Below, in pieces: positions 15,629 to 48,141 of a DNA stretch of 64,000 nt. Under the pieces are notes generated by a model. It was not told the origin of the DNA and did not search any database. It worked only from the letters and a program-made list of their open reading frames with translations. The first letter of the stretch is position 1, and each line of letters begins with the position of its first letter. The stretch comes from Deltaproteobacteria bacterium (lineage in GTDB: Bacteria > Bdellovibrionota_B > Oligoflexia > Oligoflexales > CAIYRB01), in NCBI GenBank assembly GCA_016874735.1, contig VGTI01000005.1, positions 62,001-126,000 of the forward strand. The letters are read 5' to 3'. A program made the translations under genes and the position numbers.

Positions 15629-15655
15629 GAAAGTTTTTTTTAAAACTGACGATAG
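15629..15655 (+). promoter_or_regulatory. sigma-28 (FliA)-like promoter
   Basis: GAAAGTTT, then exactly 11 bases, then GACGATAG: 13 of 16 matches to the enterobacterial FliA consensus TAAAGTTT-N11-GCCGATAA, with the CGAT core intact. It is 48 bp before the zinc-ribbon gene at 15704. It is one of a set of similar sites in this window. The match is visible; use by FliA is inference. Confidence 0.5.
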
Positions 15656-15703: not shown

Positions 15704-16036
15704 ATGTCAGCAAAGCATCCTCGGGAAGATTTCAGAGCTAACGAAGAAGAATACTTTCACAAGTTAGATTCTGAATTAATTGACCAAATCCGCTCTCAGG
15801 AGAAAGCCAGAGCCGATGAAGCGGAGAGAGCAAATCATCGAGGTCACTGTGCTGAATGCGGTGGCAACATGTTGATGTGGACTTCACATGGTATGCAAGG
15901 CTACGTGTGCTCGGAATGCGAGCAAGTCGAGCTGCAGTTACAGACGCTTAAGATCCTGATTATGAACCGCGAAGGTAAAGAAGTTTTGAAAGAAATCAAC
16001 CAAGCTGTGGGACGCGCTACCCTGAAAACTGCTTAA
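15704..16036 (+). CDS. small zinc-ribbon protein (zf-TFIIB-like)
   Basis: A 110-aa soluble protein of unknown function. A charged, helical N-terminus (about 45 residues) leads to a four-cysteine zinc ribbon, CAECGG then CSECEQVEL, separated by about 18 residues, resembling the zf-TFIIB/zinc-ribbon family where a Cys pair precedes an ELxxL-type helix. The C-terminal 35 residues are helical and basic. AGGAGGT lies four bases before the ATG, so translation should be strong. A sigma-28-like promoter is just upstream. A DksA/TraR role was considered but the DxxDxA motif is absent. Confidence 0.7.
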   Translation: MSAKHPREDFRANEEEYFHKLDSELIDQIRSQEKARADEAERANHRGHCAECGGNMLMWTSHGMQGYVCSECEQVELQLQTLKILIMNREGKEVLKEINQAVGRATLKTA

Positions 16037-16324: not shown

Positions 16325-16361
16325 TCTTATATCCAGTACCTCGATCATGGAGACTAGAGCA

Positions 16362-17384
16362 ATGAACGAAGCACCGAACAGCAACACGGGGATGAACGAC
16401 TCGTTCTCATCCCAATCGACACCGCAGTCGAACCCTTTCACGGCGGACTTGAAAGGGGAGTTCACCAGCAACTTTGGGACCAACACCAATGCGGTCTCAC
16501 AGATCTTTAAAGAAGGTGGATTCTCGAGCAGTAATAAAACCAAGTCGATTGTACTTGGTGGCGTATTGTTCCTAGTCATTTGCGTTGCACTGTTTATGTA
16601 CATGAGCGGTGACGACACGGAATCGACTGGAGAAGATGTCGCCAGCGAAACCGATGCCGAAGGCGGCGCCGACGATGCCGAAGACCCAGCGGAAGCAACA
16701 GCGAGTGACACTAAGACCGAAGAAAAAGCGAAACCTGAAGCTCCTGTAGCAGCGGCAGCTGCACCTGCTGCTCCGGCACAAGCGGCTCCAGCTCCCGCAC
16801 AAGCGGCAGCACCCAGGGTTCAGCGTAGCTTCTCAGCTAGCAGTGGTCCCATCAGTTTGGCTGAGCCTGCTGATGGCTCAAGCATCACCTACGACGAATC
16901 TCAAGGTCCAGCTACGTTCTCCTGGAACGGTGGCAGTGGCTACATCGTCTTCTCACGCAACTCCAGCATGAGCCCTGTGGTCATGCGCGTACCAGTCAGT
17001 GGTAGCTCTTATAATTTCAATCATCCGTGGCCGGGTACCTGGTTCTGGAAGGTAGAGAACAGCTCGGGTGCAACCGAGGTTCGGTCCTTCAAAGTCTCAG
17101 CGCCGCCGCGCCGCAATATCTCCCTGCAACAACCGGCCAGTGGCAGCACGATCGCTGGCAGCGGTGGTACCGTCTCCTGGCAGGGTGACAGTAAAGTCGC
17201 TTACTACAGAGTGGAGTTCACCAACGGTAGCTGGGCTAATCCCCAGTATCGGTTTGCCTCCTCGGGTAACTCTCTGCAGCTGCAAGGGGTACCAGCTGGA
17301 CAATTCCAGATGCGCCTAGGTGCATTCTCAGAAATCTCTGGACGCTGGGAATACACCCAACCCGTAAGCGTCACTGTCCAGTAA
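16362..17384 (+). CDS. single-pass membrane protein with beta-sandwich domains
   Basis: Unknown function, 340 aa. An Asn/Ser-rich cytoplasmic segment of about 65 residues is followed by one membrane helix (SIVLGGVLFLVICVALFMYM), an acidic stretch, an Ala/Pro linker, and two beta-sandwich repeats starting at ISLAEPADGSSI and ISLQQPASGSTI, each with a WxW-type core (FSWNGG, GTWFWKVEN). The repeats resemble the Ig/FnIII-like modules found next to FecR domains in predatory and delta-type bacteria. The topology suggests a periplasmic cell-wall or ligand-binding role. The second ATG is chosen because GGAGAC lies just upstream. It is followed by a strong terminator and preceded by a sigma-28-like promoter, so it is probably monocistronic. 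Confidence 0.75.
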   Translation: MNEAPNSNTGMNDSFSSQSTPQSNPFTADLKGEFTSNFGTNTNAVSQIFKEGGFSSSNKTKSIVLGGVLFLVICVALFMYMSGDDTESTGEDVASETDAEGGADDAEDPAEATASDTKTEEKAKPEAPVAAAAAPAAPAQAAPAPAQAAAPRVQRSFSASSGPISLAEPADGSSITYDESQGPATFSWNGGSGYIVFSRNSSMSPVVMRVPVSGSSYNFNHPWPGTWFWKVENSSGATEVRSFKVSAPPRRNISLQQPASGSTIAGSGGTVSWQGDSKVAYYRVEFTNGSWANPQYRFASSGNSLQLQGVPAGQFQMRLGAFSEISGRWEYTQPVSVTVQ

Positions 17385-19244: not shown

Positions 19245-19272
19245 TAAAGGTTTTCCAAATGATTGCCGAAGG
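19245..19272 (+). promoter_or_regulatory. weak sigma-28-like promoter
   Basis: TAAAGGTT, 12 bases, then GCCGAAGG: 12 of 16 matches to the FliA consensus with one extra spacer base. It lies about 70 bp upstream of the lipoprotein at 19341. The weakest member of the set. Confidence 0.3.
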
Positions 19273-19340: not shown

Positions 19341-20759
19341 ATGAGGCACGATTGGCAAAAACTTTCACGCGCTGCCGTGGCGGTGGTTACAGCTACTGGT
19401 TTGACGAGTTGCGGTGGACTTGTCCGCAAAGGGCCGCCCGCGGGCGGAAACGAAGTCGTCACCGCTCCTCCGAGGGCTTACTACGACCAGTTGTTTGCAG
19501 CAAAGTTGGGCTTACTTGACAGTGGCGCTGCGACGACAACCGCGACGTCCACGGGCGAAGTCCTTTGGCTGAACTTCGGGGGAGCCACTGTCGCCAAGGG
19601 AACGGCGAAGGGCGAGTCCTTTCAAGTCTGCGGGGACAAGGCACAAATTGCTGCGTCCACACTGACGACAGATAGCCAAGAGGTCATCGCAAGCACGGTG
19701 CAAAAATACTACACCGATGCCGGAGCTGATCTCAAAGTCACAGTGACTCAACCTACTAGCGGTGATTACACCACCGTCGTTGTCGGTGGCAGTTTAGCCG
19801 ACCTAGGCTGCTCGGACCCAAGCGGTTTGGGCGTGGCCCCACTCGATGTTGGTAACGCCAACCATAACGACATAGCTTTTGTTTTCACCCCGGCTGACAT
19901 CAGCGACAAGCAATTGGCCGTCAATATCGCCCACGTGTCAGCACACACTTATGGGCTGGCCACGATCACCGATCCAAATGATGTTATGGCCGAAAAGCCG
20001 CTGGATACGGCCAAGGGCTTCGGTGTAGGCAAACGCCTCGATAACGGTGCGGAGCAAAACGGGCTCATTATTCTTGCGGAAGCAACTGGCGTCCAAGTGA
20101 CTAAGCCAGGTGAAGCTGACGCCACCAAAGGCGACGATACGACGAACGCACCAGCACCAACATCGGTACCGGCACCTATGCCACTGCCACCTGTTGTGGC
20201 TCCCGGCAAAGGAACTGACTTGATTGTGGACGACATGATCAACAAGATGCCGCACAACCCCAAATCTGCGCGTCATATCATCCCTATGCTTCGCGGCCTG
20301 CTACCGTTTGCCTTTAGCCTCGACCTCAAAGCTGTCACCGAAATCTTCGATGCGACAGGCTTTGGTTCCGGCGCTAATAGCGACAAATCTGGCACAGGAC
20401 GCCGCTCGACGATCACTGTCAATGTCAAGGTAGACATTAGTCATGTGTGGAAACAAGGTGACGCCGTTGCGCAACCTGCTGACGAGCCCACCATCGCGAC
20501 TGAACCGGGTACGGGAACAACCGCGGCACCAACTGGTGATAAAGCCGCAGCACCCGCAGCGACCACCGAAGTTGCTAAAACTGATGTAGGCGCCAATGAG
20601 CCGCCGAAAAATCCAGCCGAAGCAGCGAAAGTGATCAACAGCATGCCGACCATCGTTAACGTGATTACGATCAACTTTAATGCGTCAGACAGCCAACGTT
20701 TGCTACCCCTTATGAAAATGGGATGCCTGAAAAAATACATGGCAGCCCGTGGTGAGTAG
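19341..20759 (+). CDS. lipoprotein with degenerate metzincin-like motif
   Basis: Lipid-anchored extracytoplasmic protein of 472 aa, unknown function. A signal ends in the lipobox LTSC, followed by a Gly-rich linker. Around residues 195-215 lies AHVSAHTYGLATITDPNDVM, laid out like the metzincin zinc site HExxHxxGxxH with its Met-turn, but the catalytic Glu is Val and the third His is lost; only two His remain. A Pro/Ala/Thr-rich linker follows, then a region repeated in kind (DDMINKMP near 295 and VINSMPTIVN near 435). AGAGGAG lies before the ATG. It is probably a binding protein derived from a peptidase fold. Monocistronic between a regulator and the clpB terminator. Confidence 0.75.
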   Translation: MRHDWQKLSRAAVAVVTATGLTSCGGLVRKGPPAGGNEVVTAPPRAYYDQLFAAKLGLLDSGAATTTATSTGEVLWLNFGGATVAKGTAKGESFQVCGDKAQIAASTLTTDSQEVIASTVQKYYTDAGADLKVTVTQPTSGDYTTVVVGGSLADLGCSDPSGLGVAPLDVGNANHNDIAFVFTPADISDKQLAVNIAHVSAHTYGLATITDPNDVMAEKPLDTAKGFGVGKRLDNGAEQNGLIILAEATGVQVTKPGEADATKGDDTTNAPAPTSVPAPMPLPPVVAPGKGTDLIVDDMINKMPHNPKSARHIIPMLRGLLPFAFSLDLKAVTEIFDATGFGSGANSDKSGTGRRSTITVNVKVDISHVWKQGDAVAQPADEPTIATEPGTGTTAAPTGDKAAAPAATTEVAKTDVGANEPPKNPAEAAKVINSMPTIVNVITINFNASDSQRLLPLMKMGCLKKYMAARGE

Positions 20760-30882: not shown

Positions 30883-30931
30883 TCGTCGATTGATTTAGAT
30901 TCTTTGACGCATAATCCTTGATGGCACCTTG

Positions 30932-31501
30932 ATGACGCGGGCAACGCATACTGAGTGGATTTGGCTCAATTTCAAGATTGGCACCTTCAGTATTGGTGTC
31001 GCTTCGCGTCTACAACTTTTTGAGGAAGCGATCGTCCGTAAACACAAGTGGTTAAGCGCAGATGAGTTTCAAGAATTACTTACACTAGCGCAGATGCTGC
31101 CTGGACCAAACCTGGTCAATTTCGCCATGTGCGCTGGATCGCTTTTGGTGGGAAGATTGGCGGCTATACTAGCCGTAGTGGCACTGATACTACCCGGCGC
31201 CATCTTAGCTATAGCTGTATATAGCATCGCGCCCCTTCATGATCTTCGTGTCAAAATCTGGTTCCAAGGAATGGCGATCGGTGCGTTCTTGTTAACGGCA
31301 CGCTTCATCTGGCAGCTTGCTATTGGCCTGCGCTTGACCTTGAACGACCAAGGCAAGCCGGCCACTGGAGCTAGTCGTAAGTGGTGGGGCCGCGCCTTAA
31401 TTGCTGCTAGTGTCACGGTTGCCAGCTTTTATGGGCTACCCGTGGTCATCGTGGTACTTGTCGCCGCGGCCGTCTGCCTCTTATGGGAGTTTAGCTGGTG
31501 A
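30932..31501 (+). CDS. chromate transporter, N-terminal half-type subunit
   Basis: Membrane protein of 189 aa that matches one half of the ChrA fold: an N-terminal WLNFKIGTFSIG helix, then LAQMLPGPNLVNFAMCAG with the PGP motif of the family and four to five more helices. Short ChrA proteins act as a pair encoded by adjacent genes. The start is unclear: TTG at 30929 and ATG at 30932 are adjacent and neither has a good ribosome site. The stop overlaps the partner's GTG start by 4 bp. Confidence 0.85.
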   Translation: MTRATHTEWIWLNFKIGTFSIGVASRLQLFEEAIVRKHKWLSADEFQELLTLAQMLPGPNLVNFAMCAGSLLVGRLAAILAVVALILPGAILAIAVYSIAPLHDLRVKIWFQGMAIGAFLLTARFIWQLAIGLRLTLNDQGKPATGASRKWWGRALIAASVTVASFYGLPVVIVVLVAAAVCLLWEFSW

Positions 31502-32037
31502 TTTATTGGCAGCTATTTTTCCTCTTCGCCAGTGCCAGCCTTCTGGCGTTCGGCGGTGCCATAGGCATGCTTCCTTCGATCAGCGATGCCGTTGTAAACA
31601 CTTTTCACTGGCTTGATACCGAATCCGTCATGCGCTCTTATGTACTAGGTCAGTTTATGCCTGGACCGAATATGGTTATGGCTACTCTCGTTGGTTATCA
31701 GGTTGCTGGATTTAAGGGGGCAACGGCTAGCACGATCGGCATGTATCTCGCTCCCATAGCGCTCACGAGTGTGGTTACGCAAATTTATTACCGCCACCGA
31801 AGTAAATCATACGTGCGCCGCATCGAGATCGCATTGCGCCCGCTTGCCCTGGGCTTGGTCTTGGCCGCAACACTGCGGTTTCTCAGCGACGAGATGAAAC
31901 AGCATGTATTCATCGGTGCGAGCATCGGGTTACCAGTGGTATGGCTGCACTGGCGCGGGCACGTCAATACCGTGGTAGGTGTGCTCATGATGGGTGCTGG
32001 ATGGTACGTGGCCTACCTACTAGAGCTGCTAAGCTAA
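31498..32037 (+). CDS. chromate transporter, C-terminal half-type subunit
   Basis: Second ChrA-family half, 179 aa, with the same pattern: ASASLLAFGGAIG, then YVLGQFMPGPNMVMATLVGY with PGP, and further membrane helices. Its GTG start sits in the GTGA overlap with the upstream half, so the two are made together and probably form a heterodimer with opposite topology. Actual substrate may be chromate, sulfate-like anions, or unknown; no other chromate resistance gene is nearby. Confidence 0.85.
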   Translation: MIYWQLFFLFASASLLAFGGAIGMLPSISDAVVNTFHWLDTESVMRSYVLGQFMPGPNMVMATLVGYQVAGFKGATASTIGMYLAPIALTSVVTQIYYRHRSKSYVRRIEIALRPLALGLVLAATLRFLSDEMKQHVFIGASIGLPVVWLHWRGHVNTVVGVLMMGAGWYVAYLLELLS

Positions 32038-32103
32038 ACTCATGTAATGCAGAGAACTTTAAGATGATAGCGCTCAAAAAAAAGCAAACAATTAACTTTT
32101 ATC

Positions 32104-32131
32104 TAAAGTTTTTACCCGAAAGTGCCGATAA
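32104..32131 (+). promoter_or_regulatory. sigma-28 (FliA) promoter, both boxes exact
   Basis: TAAAGTTT (8 of 8), 12 bases, GCCGATAA (8 of 8). The spacer is one base longer than the usual 11. The inferred start near 32138 gives a 30-base leader to the CAP lipoprotein ATG at 32169. This is the clearest sequence of its kind in the window. Confidence 0.75.
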
Positions 32132-32168
32132 GGGCCGTCAGTCGGAGTTGTCGCAGTCGGGGTTTTTT

Positions 32169-33050
32169 ATGAAAAGAGTTCGAGCGGATGGTTGGTTACT
32201 ATTAATTTCATTAAACATAGTAGGCTTAGTCGCGTGCAAGCCTGCCTCCAGCGGTAGCGCACGAGCACCGGCTCCTGGTGCCTCCGAAGAGGAGGACGAA
32301 GATGACACTGGCGGAGCTGCTGTGCCGCCGGCCACGACGCCTGCCACGACCACGGCTAGCGTTCCCACGACGCCCACGACGGCAGTGCCACCAACAACGA
32401 TCACTCCTGGTGGCGGCAACGGCCAGCCCGGAGGCTTTATCGGCAATCTAATTAGTCAATTCACTAATGGCGGTGGGCTCGGTGGGCTCACCAGTAGCCT
32501 CGGTGGCCTCTTTAACGGCGGGGGACTCGGAGGTTTCGACCTCGGTAGTCTCCTGAATGGGCTTGGTGGAGGACTCGGCGGACTAAACAATAATGGTTTT
32601 GGTGGTCAGTCGAGCACCAACAGCGGTGCTAGCAATGGCACAACTACAAACTCAACCAACCAAATAGCCCTAGTTAGTAACTCTGGCGATCTGCGGGTTG
32701 ACTGCCTCAATGCTATAAACGCCTACCGCGCTTCTATAGGGCGCTCGGCCTTGACGTTGAAAAATGACGCAACCACAAATAGCTGTGTCGATAAGCAGTC
32801 TGCTGACGACGGCGCCATCGGAGCCGCTCACCGTAACTTTGGTAAGTGCGGCGAATCCGCGCAAAACGAATGCCCGGGGTGGGGTGGTGAGACTGGCACG
32901 GCCCAAAACGGCTGTCTCAAAATGATGTGGGGCGAGGGCCCAGGTGGTGGTCACTACGAGAATATGGCCAACGCTGCCTACAGGCAGGTGTCCTGTGGTT
33001 ATGCGCAAGTAGGTGGCAAGCTTTGGATGATCCAAAACTTTTATCGCTAA
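32169..33050 (+). CDS. CAP/SCP-domain lipoprotein
   Basis: Lipid-anchored extracytoplasmic protein of 293 aa. The signal ends in LVAC; then come an acidic patch, a Thr/Pro linker, and a Gly/Leu-rich low-complexity region (GGLGG and LGGL units, about residues 85-145). The C-terminal 120 residues form a CAP (cysteine-rich secretory protein) domain: CLNAINAYRASIG, the His in AAHRNFGKC, and GHYENMANAAYRQVSCGYA. Six or more Cys suggest disulfides. The long upstream frame is not translated: the ATG here starts a proper signal, downstream of an exact sigma-28 promoter, so it may be co-expressed with flagellar genes. Role unknown; CAP domains often act on surfaces or bind lipids. Confidence 0.8.
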   Translation: MKRVRADGWLLLISLNIVGLVACKPASSGSARAPAPGASEEEDEDDTGGAAVPPATTPATTTASVPTTPTTAVPPTTITPGGGNGQPGGFIGNLISQFTNGGGLGGLTSSLGGLFNGGGLGGFDLGSLLNGLGGGLGGLNNNGFGGQSSTNSGASNGTTTNSTNQIALVSNSGDLRVDCLNAINAYRASIGRSALTLKNDATTNSCVDKQSADDGAIGAAHRNFGKCGESAQNECPGWGGETGTAQNGCLKMMWGEGPGGGHYENMANAAYRQVSCGYAQVGGKLWMIQNFYR

Positions 33051-47560: not shown

Positions 47561-47587
47561 TAAAGTTGAACGCCACGGTGCCGATAA
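47561..47587 (+). promoter_or_regulatory. sigma-28 (FliA) promoter of response regulator
   Basis: TAAAGTTG (7 of 8), exactly 11 bases, GCCGATAA (8 of 8). The inferred start near 47594 leaves a leader of about 41 bases to the response-regulator ATG at 47635. Confidence 0.75.
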
Positions 47588-47634: not shown

Positions 47635-48141
47635 ATGAAGAAGGAAAATCTAGCACCGCAGGCCGAGAAGTCGCTCCGCCGCCAGATTGAGACGATCAAA
47701 CGCCAAAAGATCGTCAACAAGAAGGTCGTGAGCCTTGCCGACTTTCGCGAACTACGCCAACGCATCGACACGCGCACCATTCTCGTTGTCGATGACGACG
47801 AGATTATGCGATCCGCTCTTAAACGCATCCTGGAAAACGAGGGCTACAAAGTCATCATGGCCGTCGATGGCCTGGAGCTCTCAAAAGTTCTGGAGACGAC
47901 GCGACTCGATCTCATCTTGCTCGATGTGAATCTGCCTTGGGTAGACGGTTACGAGCTGTGCCGACTGATCAAGGACCATCATTCGCTGAAAGCCGTGCCA
48001 CTCGTCCTGGTGTCGGCGCGCAAGAGCACCCAAGACATTCAAAATGGCTTTGCCGCAGGTGCTAATGACTACGTCACAAAGCCCTTTGATATCGATTATA
48101 TGACCGGGGTGATCAATAAGATGCTGCTACAATCGGGCTAA
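47635..48141 (+). CDS. orphan response regulator, receiver domain only
   Basis: 168 aa: a basic N-terminal arm of about 45 residues (many Lys/Arg), then one receiver domain. Acidic pocket VVDDDE, phosphorylated Asp in LILLDVNLP, the Ser of LVSARKS and Lys in VTKPF are all present, so it should be phosphorylated. No output domain and no kinase adjacent. An exact FliA-type promoter suggests a CheY-like role in motility; the basic arm could bind DNA, RNA or a motor partner. Inference beyond the receiver domain. Confidence 0.85.
   Translation: MKKENLAPQAEKSLRRQIETIKRQKIVNKKVVSLADFRELRQRIDTRTILVVDDDEIMRSALKRILENEGYKVIMAVDGLELSKVLETTRLDLILLDVNLPWVDGYELCRLIKDHHSLKAVPLVLVSARKSTQDIQNGFAAGANDYVTKPFDIDYMTGVINKMLLQSG

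What the first reader, a model, noticed from the sequence alone, without database searches (positions are those of the whole stretch)
32104..32131. Exact FliA (sigma-28) promoter before a CAP-domain lipoprotein, with a likely wider regulon
Both boxes are identical to TAAAGTTT and GCCGATAA (16 of 16), with a 12-base spacer. The downstream gene encodes a lipid-anchored CAP protein with no flagellar annotation. Similar sites occur at 47561, 15629, 16262 and weakly 19245, all 30-70 bp before genes for envelope or signalling proteins. Together they suggest a motility-coupled regulon that includes extracytoplasmic proteins, perhaps surface adhesion or prey/host contact.
Basis: partly seen in the sequence, partly recalled or inferred. 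Interest (0 to 1): 0.75.

Follow-up and report, generated by a model that had tools for sequence, protein, structure and literature searches.

The report
Flagellar-sigma promoter driving a lipoprotein regulon
A perfect promoter for the flagellar sigma factor FliA sits in front of a surface-type lipoprotein gene, and the same promoter recurs across this genome and its relatives mostly in front of other lipoprotein genes, suggesting that this bacterium uses its swimming switch to turn on a large set of cell-surface proteins.

Summary
TAAAGTTT-N12-GCCGATAA at 32104-32131 is exact, with none expected by chance. It lies 37 bp before the ATG (32169) of a lipobox-bearing CAP-domain protein and is kept upstream of its orthologues in three same-genus genomes. 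The genome has one FliA gene, in a flhB-flhA-flhF-fliA-cheY cluster, and the anti-sigma factor FlgM. It has 24 exact sites (18 N12, 6 N11) and about 150 excess near-matches. Sites are almost all intergenic, use two spacer lengths, and extend to CTAAAGTTT-N11/12-GCCGATAAG.

The main result goes beyond the finding: the sites mark lipoprotein genes. A lipoprotein start follows 21 of 24 exact, 26 of 41 one-mismatch and 21 of 52 two-mismatch sites, against 19 of 161 genes without a site. Exact sites in three same-genus genomes repeat this (28 of 37); other members of the order show 11 of 22. Two of three chemoreceptors and one or two of six flagellins carry only weaker sites.

FliA as a global regulator of non-flagellar surface genes is known in Bdellovibrio, so this is a lipoprotein-dominated variant of a known kind. 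FliA dependence, timing and a role in prey or host contact are inferred, not shown.

The parts
32104..32131 (+). Perfect sigma-28 promoter: -35 box 32104-32111 (TAAAGTTT), 12-bp spacer 32112-32123, -10 box 32124-32131 (GCCGATAA); flanked by C at 32103 and G at 32132, which also belong to the genome's extended motif
   Evidence: kept in orthologues
32169..33050 (+). CAP-domain lipoprotein, 293 aa (lipobox LVAC, Cys23; Gly/Ala/Thr-rich low-complexity linker; CAP domain about 180-290)
   Evidence: The in-frame ATG at 32064 would place the promoter inside the gene, but the signal peptide and lipobox fit 32169, and the orthologues start at the matching ATG
47561..47587 (+). sigma-28 site, N11, 1 mismatch, 48 bp before a response-regulator gene
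47635..48141 (+). response-regulator receiver protein, 168 aa
   Evidence: PF00072, 101.6 bits
16262..16288 (+). sigma-28-like site, N11, 3 mismatches, 59 bp before a gene
   Evidence: score 20.4
16347..17384 (+). 345-aa protein with one predicted transmembrane segment and an Ala/Pro-rich linker; no family above cut-off
15629..15655 (+). sigma-28-like site, N11, 3 mismatches, 49 bp before a gene
   Evidence: score 19.6
15704..16036 (+). 110-aa zinc-ribbon-like protein, probably cytosolic
   Evidence: below curated cut-offs
19245..19272 (+). weak sigma-28-like site, N12, 4 mismatches, 69 bp before a lipoprotein gene
   Evidence: score 12.7; about 0.25 expected per 64 kb
19341..20759 (+). 472-aa lipoprotein (lipobox LTSC), no Pfam family

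Best explanation
The element is a FliA (sigma-28) promoter. RNA polymerase carrying FliA is expected to recognise CTAAAGTTT-N11/12-GCCGATAAG and start about 6-8 bp downstream (inferred), giving a short leader to the CAP lipoprotein. The site is one of a large set in this genome. In this lineage FliA has been extended from motility genes to a regulon made mainly of lipoproteins: mostly family-less proteins plus proteases, a PNGase-F-like protein, CAP, EF-hand and cytochrome-c lipoproteins. It also covers a few regulators (TetR, two TIGR02147-family proteins, response regulators). FlgM, exported through the completed flagellar hook-basal body in other bacteria, would hold FliA back until flagella are built, so these lipoproteins would appear in the swimming phase. 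Shown here: motif, position, genome-wide enrichment, lipoprotein association, conservation, and presence of FliA and FlgM. Inferred: FliA binding, start site, timing, and a role in surface or prey/host contact.
For: Exact consensus, none expected. Genome-wide counts 163 against 30 and 52 against 3 for reversed controls. With the spacer left free, 51 of 52 matches use the N11 or N12 register. Of 66 sites with at most 1 mismatch, 65 are intergenic by gene call (the exception is the CAP site, where the caller chose the earlier ATG), in a window 90% coding. The flanks also carry information: C before the -35 box in 59 of 66, G after the -10 box in 43 of 66. Lipoprotein start within 258 bp: exact 21/24, one mismatch 26/41, two mismatches 21/52, control 19/161; strict PROSITE rule 13/24, 17/41, 15/52, 10/161; Fisher p about 1e-18 (broad) and 2e-11 (strict) for sites with at most one mismatch. 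Replication in same-genus genomes 14/19, 9/10, 5/8 (p about 3e-14) and elsewhere in the order 11/22 (p about 8e-5). The CAP orthologues in G004, G002 and G005 keep the site with scores 35.5, 33.6, 30.0 of 37.1. One FliA and one FlgM. Weaker sites just before two chemoreceptor genes (14.2, 13.2) and 55 bp before one flagellin (17.0) tie the motif to motility. None of the 30 strict lipoproteins at sites with at most 1 mismatch has Asp after the Cys, as expected for outer-membrane sorting by the E. coli rule.
Against: No transcription start or binding data. Four of six flagellins have no site, and the best sites are on lipoproteins rather than motility genes. The lipobox test is a heuristic that accepts any start codon; some hits will be false, in controls too. 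In G001 and G003 the more distant CAP homologues with readable upstream sequence lack the site. The genome is a draft in 166 contigs and could not be scanned whole with a weight matrix.
Confidence: 0.82

Rival explanations
1. The motif is read by a different sigma factor or by an activator; the likeness to the E. coli FliA consensus is real but the regulon is a lipoprotein or envelope regulon unlinked to flagella.
For: The strongest sites are on lipoproteins; four of six flagellins and one of three chemoreceptors lack them.
Against: Both eight-base boxes match the known FliA consensus; the genome's only FliA-family sigma factor above cut-off is a canonical FliA in the flagellar operon; FlgM is present; two chemoreceptors and one flagellin carry credible weaker sites; Bdellovibrio FliA uses TTAAG-N16-CCGATA, the same register as N12 here (PMC3627812).
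Confidence: 0.1
2. An ordinary, small flagellar regulon: FliA sites here only mark a few genes that happen to include a lipoprotein.
For: E. coli FliA serves mainly flagellar and motility genes (stated in PMC12622784).
Against: 24 exact sites and about 150 excess near-matches in one genome; 21 of 24 exact sites precede lipoproteins; none of the exact-site products that were scanned matches a flagellar family in Pfam.
Confidence: 0.04
3. The site lies inside the gene (translation from 32064 or earlier) and is a chance or coding-constrained sequence.
For: The frame is open from before the site, and an ATG at 32064 exists.
Against: A lipoprotein signal peptide with its Cys at residue 23 begins at 32169; orthologues begin at the matching ATG and keep the promoter though the sequence upstream of it has changed; the exact motif recurs 23 more times, outside called genes.
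Confidence: 0.03

Closest known systems
FliA (sigma-28) attack-phase regulon of Bdellovibrio bacteriovorus (Karunker et al. 2013, PMC3627812; Sci Rep 2017, PMC5430801)
   Same: FliA promoters far beyond flagella; the same -35/-10 register (TTAAG-N16-CCGATA there, N12 between eight-base boxes here); many surface proteins, proteases and uncharacterised genes; secondary regulators among the targets.
   Different: Here most of the best sites lead lipoproteins, and the flagellins largely lack strong sites, whereas flagellin promoters respond to FliA in Bdellovibrio. The main text of those two papers does not mention lipoproteins; their gene tables could not be read here. No expression data and no known predatory cycle for this organism.
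Classical FliA/FlgM class-3 flagellar regulon of E. coli and Salmonella
   Same: Identical consensus boxes; FliA and FlgM present; some motility genes with sites.
   Different: Spacer 12 more often than 11 among exact sites; an extra C before the -35 box and G after the -10 box; targets mainly lipoproteins.
CAP (CRISP/SCP/PR-1, PF00188) superfamily proteins
   Same: Domain recognised above cut-off in orthologues; homologues outside the genus found mainly in Myxococcota.
   Different: Lipid-anchored with a long low-complexity linker, under a sigma-28 promoter.

Membership tests
FliA (sigma-28)-dependent promoter | -35 TAAAGTTT and -10 GCCGATAA | tested here: met
FliA (sigma-28)-dependent promoter | Spacer near 11 bp | tested here: met
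   12 here; N11 and N12 are the only lengths enriched genome-wide; N12 equals the Bdellovibrio register
FliA (sigma-28)-dependent promoter | A FliA gene in the genome | tested here: met
FliA (sigma-28)-dependent promoter | Same motif on flagellar and chemotaxis genes | tested here: inconclusive
   2 of 3 chemoreceptors and 1 (perhaps 2) of 6 flagellins, weaker sites
FliA (sigma-28)-dependent promoter | Start site a few bases after the -10 box and loss in a fliA mutant | not testable with these tools
   needs RNA data
Bdellovibrio-type global FliA regulon | Dozens or more FliA promoters on non-flagellar genes, including surface proteins and proteases | tested here: met
Bdellovibrio-type global FliA regulon | Attack-phase-specific expression and predation | not testable with these tools
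   no expression or lifestyle data for this draft genome
Bdellovibrio-type global FliA regulon | Flagellin promoters under FliA | tested here: inconclusive
   most flagellins lack a site; one has a credible one
Bacterial lipoprotein | Signal peptide with lipobox ending in Cys (PROSITE PS51257 rule) | tested here: met
   MKRVRADGWLLLISLNIVGLVAC; Cys invariant in the orthologues
CAP superfamily (PF00188) | Pfam CAP at or above the curated cut-off | tested here: inconclusive
   19.7 bits against 21.1 in the window protein; 24.6 and 23.5 in orthologues

The most novel reading that the evidence does not exclude
In this genus, and more weakly across its order, FliA has become the dedicated sigma factor of a surface lipoproteome: the flagellar assembly checkpoint (FlgM export) gates a large set of outer-membrane lipoproteins, while most flagellins have left FliA control.
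Probability: 0.35. Interest if true: 0.75.

Novelty: new variant of a known kind. Interest (0 to 1): 0.6.

Why it matters
FliA is the textbook late flagellar sigma factor. Bdellovibrio showed that it can take over a whole life-cycle phase; here a separate lineage appears to have used it for a specific protein class, lipoproteins, most with no known family. The promoter motif therefore acts as a ready list of surface proteins likely to be made together in the swimming phase, and it makes the link between motility and surface or prey/host contact directly testable in relatives that can be cultured.

Tried and rejected
The first control set for the lipoprotein test included a few true target genes seen through neighbouring loci (visible); it was rebuilt without genes that have a site. 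The nearest named records are unclassified metagenome genomes (AM_0764, Loclat_bin-10810), which match G004 and G002 by site counts and positions. A phylum with one class and two orders among the held genomes, the other order at 28-30% GC, fits Oligoflexia (Oligoflexales plus Silvanigrellales), but this is inference. Rejected: chance or composition (reversed-pattern controls), mobile repeat (spacers and flanks differ from site to site), intragenic artefact (signal-peptide position and orthologues). A paper search for FliA with lipoprotein and Bdellovibrio returned none, and one for FliA, lipoprotein, regulon and sigma 28 returned no title or abstract describing a lipoprotein regulon.

Full report
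Observation. The sequence at 32104-32131 reads TAAAGTTT-TTACCCGAAAGT-GCCGATAA, an exact match to both FliA boxes with a 12-bp spacer; dinucleotide shuffles of the window gave none. With an extended matrix built from the genome's own sites they score 28.4, 20.4, 19.6 and 12.7, against 35.8 for 32104. Simulated sequence gives no score of 14 or more and one of 12 or more per four windows.

The gene. The CAP gene most likely starts at ATG 32169, 37 bp after the -10 box: its first 23 residues form a lipoprotein signal peptide ending LVAC. An earlier in-frame ATG (32064) would make the promoter intragenic, but the orthologues argue against that. L064 (72% identical over the alignment) and L065 (55%) start at the matching ATG, keep the same promoter, and have different sequence upstream of it. 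In all, three same-genus orthologues keep the site with scores 35.5, 33.6 and 30.0 of 37.1. The more distant homologues in G001 and G003 whose upstream sequence could be read show none. The CAP domain is just under Pfam's cut-off in the window protein and above it in the orthologues.

Genome-wide. The genome (4.65 Mb, 166 contigs) holds 18 exact N12 and 6 exact N11 sites. Allowing mismatches, N12 with up to 3 gives 163 against 30 for the reversed pattern, and N11 with up to 2 gives 52 against 3. With the spacer left free, 51 of 52 matches fall on the N11 or N12 register. Of the 66 sites with at most one mismatch, 65 are called intergenic and the remaining one is the CAP site with the earlier start; the window is 90% coding. 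The aligned sites show further conserved positions: C before the -35 box (59 of 66), A/T-rich bases then T before the -10 box, and G after it (43 of 66).

What the sites control. Downstream genes are mostly lipoproteins. Under a broad lipobox rule applied equally to all sets, 21 of 24 exact sites, 26 of 41 one-mismatch and 21 of 52 two-mismatch sites have a lipoprotein start within 258 bp, against 19 of 161 genes without a site. The strict PROSITE rule gives 13/24, 17/41 and 15/52 against 10/161. The fraction falls as the site weakens, as expected if weaker sets contain more chance matches. The test was then repeated on exact sites in genomes not used to form the idea: G004 14/19, G002 9/10, G003 5/8, and 11/22 in other genera of the order. 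Looser sites in G005 and G001 gave 10/20 and 11/18 under a slightly different broad rule. None of the 30 strict lipoproteins at sites with at most one mismatch has Asp after the Cys.

Kinds of target. Most targets match no Pfam family. Those that do include PNGase-F C-terminal, LssY_C, trypsin, carboxypeptidase-regulatory, EF-hand, cytochrome c, clostripain and M60 peptidase domains. Regulators are also present: TetR, two TIGR02147/DUF4423 proteins and response regulators. Several targets have relatives that also sit behind sites in G005 or G001.

Sigma factor and motility. One gene passes the FliA model's cut-off (286.7 bits). It lies in a flhB-flhA-flhF-fliA-cheY order (gene names from sequence likeness except FliA), and the other two hits are well under the cut-off. 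FlgM is present beside flgN- and flgK-like genes. Of three chemoreceptors, two have sites of 14.2 and 13.2 just before the start. Of six flagellins, one has a site of 17.0 and one a marginal 8.1; the rest have none. This links the motif to motility but shows that the strongest sites are elsewhere.

Distribution. Exact N11/N12 sites number 24 here and 8-25 in the five same-genus genomes, 7 in G010, and 0-3 in the other genomes of the order; all reversed controls are 0. The expansion is therefore concentrated in this genus.

Comparison with the known. Bdellovibrio FliA controls two-thirds of mapped attack-phase promoters through TTAAG-N16-CCGATA, including surface anchors, proteases and chemotaxis genes (PMC3627812), and FliA is reported essential there (PMC5430801). 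N16 in that notation is the N12 register seen here. The present case works like that system and differs in the dominance of lipoproteins and the weak or missing flagellin sites. Whether Bdellovibrio's own FliA regulon is lipoprotein-rich could not be tested.

Limits. No expression or binding data; a draft genome; heuristic gene starts and lipobox calls; organism unnamed. The affiliation to Oligoflexales is inferred only. A flagellated Oligoflexales bacterium is reported as a pest that replicates inside algal cells (PMC12865303), which makes prey or host contact thinkable for the group but says nothing direct about this genome.

Noticed in passing
L047 (G000:C24), L216 (G005), L232 (G001), L340 (G024, another family): A small protein of about 90 aa, without lipobox, with a shared RRM..GE and W(Y/F)PPRP segment, sits behind a FliA site in several genomes, one of another family; it may be a core FliA target of unknown function.
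   Followed up: partly
L145 (own), L228 (G005), L293 (G004): A TetR-type regulator appears to keep the FliA site in three species, so the regulon seems to include its own secondary regulator.
   Followed up: partly
L057:472-1344 and L147:2061-2930: Two TIGR02147/DUF4423 family proteins each carry a one-mismatch FliA site.
   Followed up: no
G000:C60 (18.3 kb; L017, L149, L150, L176): One short contig carries at least seven FliA-type sites, several before lipoproteins: a possible lipoprotein island.
   Followed up: no
L051 and L194: Two loci share a FliA-type site with a near-identical spacer followed by a 42-aa ORF (MKNKLKTGLFVYEAAVLAAYMVLRP...), a possible duplicated small protein.
   Followed up: no
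L196, L202, L173 and G010 L254: Very long proteins without Pfam family (about 970-990 aa), related to one another by BLASTP through a G010 protein, follow two-mismatch FliA sites.
   Followed up: no
window 30929-32037: Two adjacent chromate-transporter half genes lie directly upstream of the CAP gene here but apparently not in the two orthologous loci L064 and L065, judging by the sequence just upstream.
   Followed up: no
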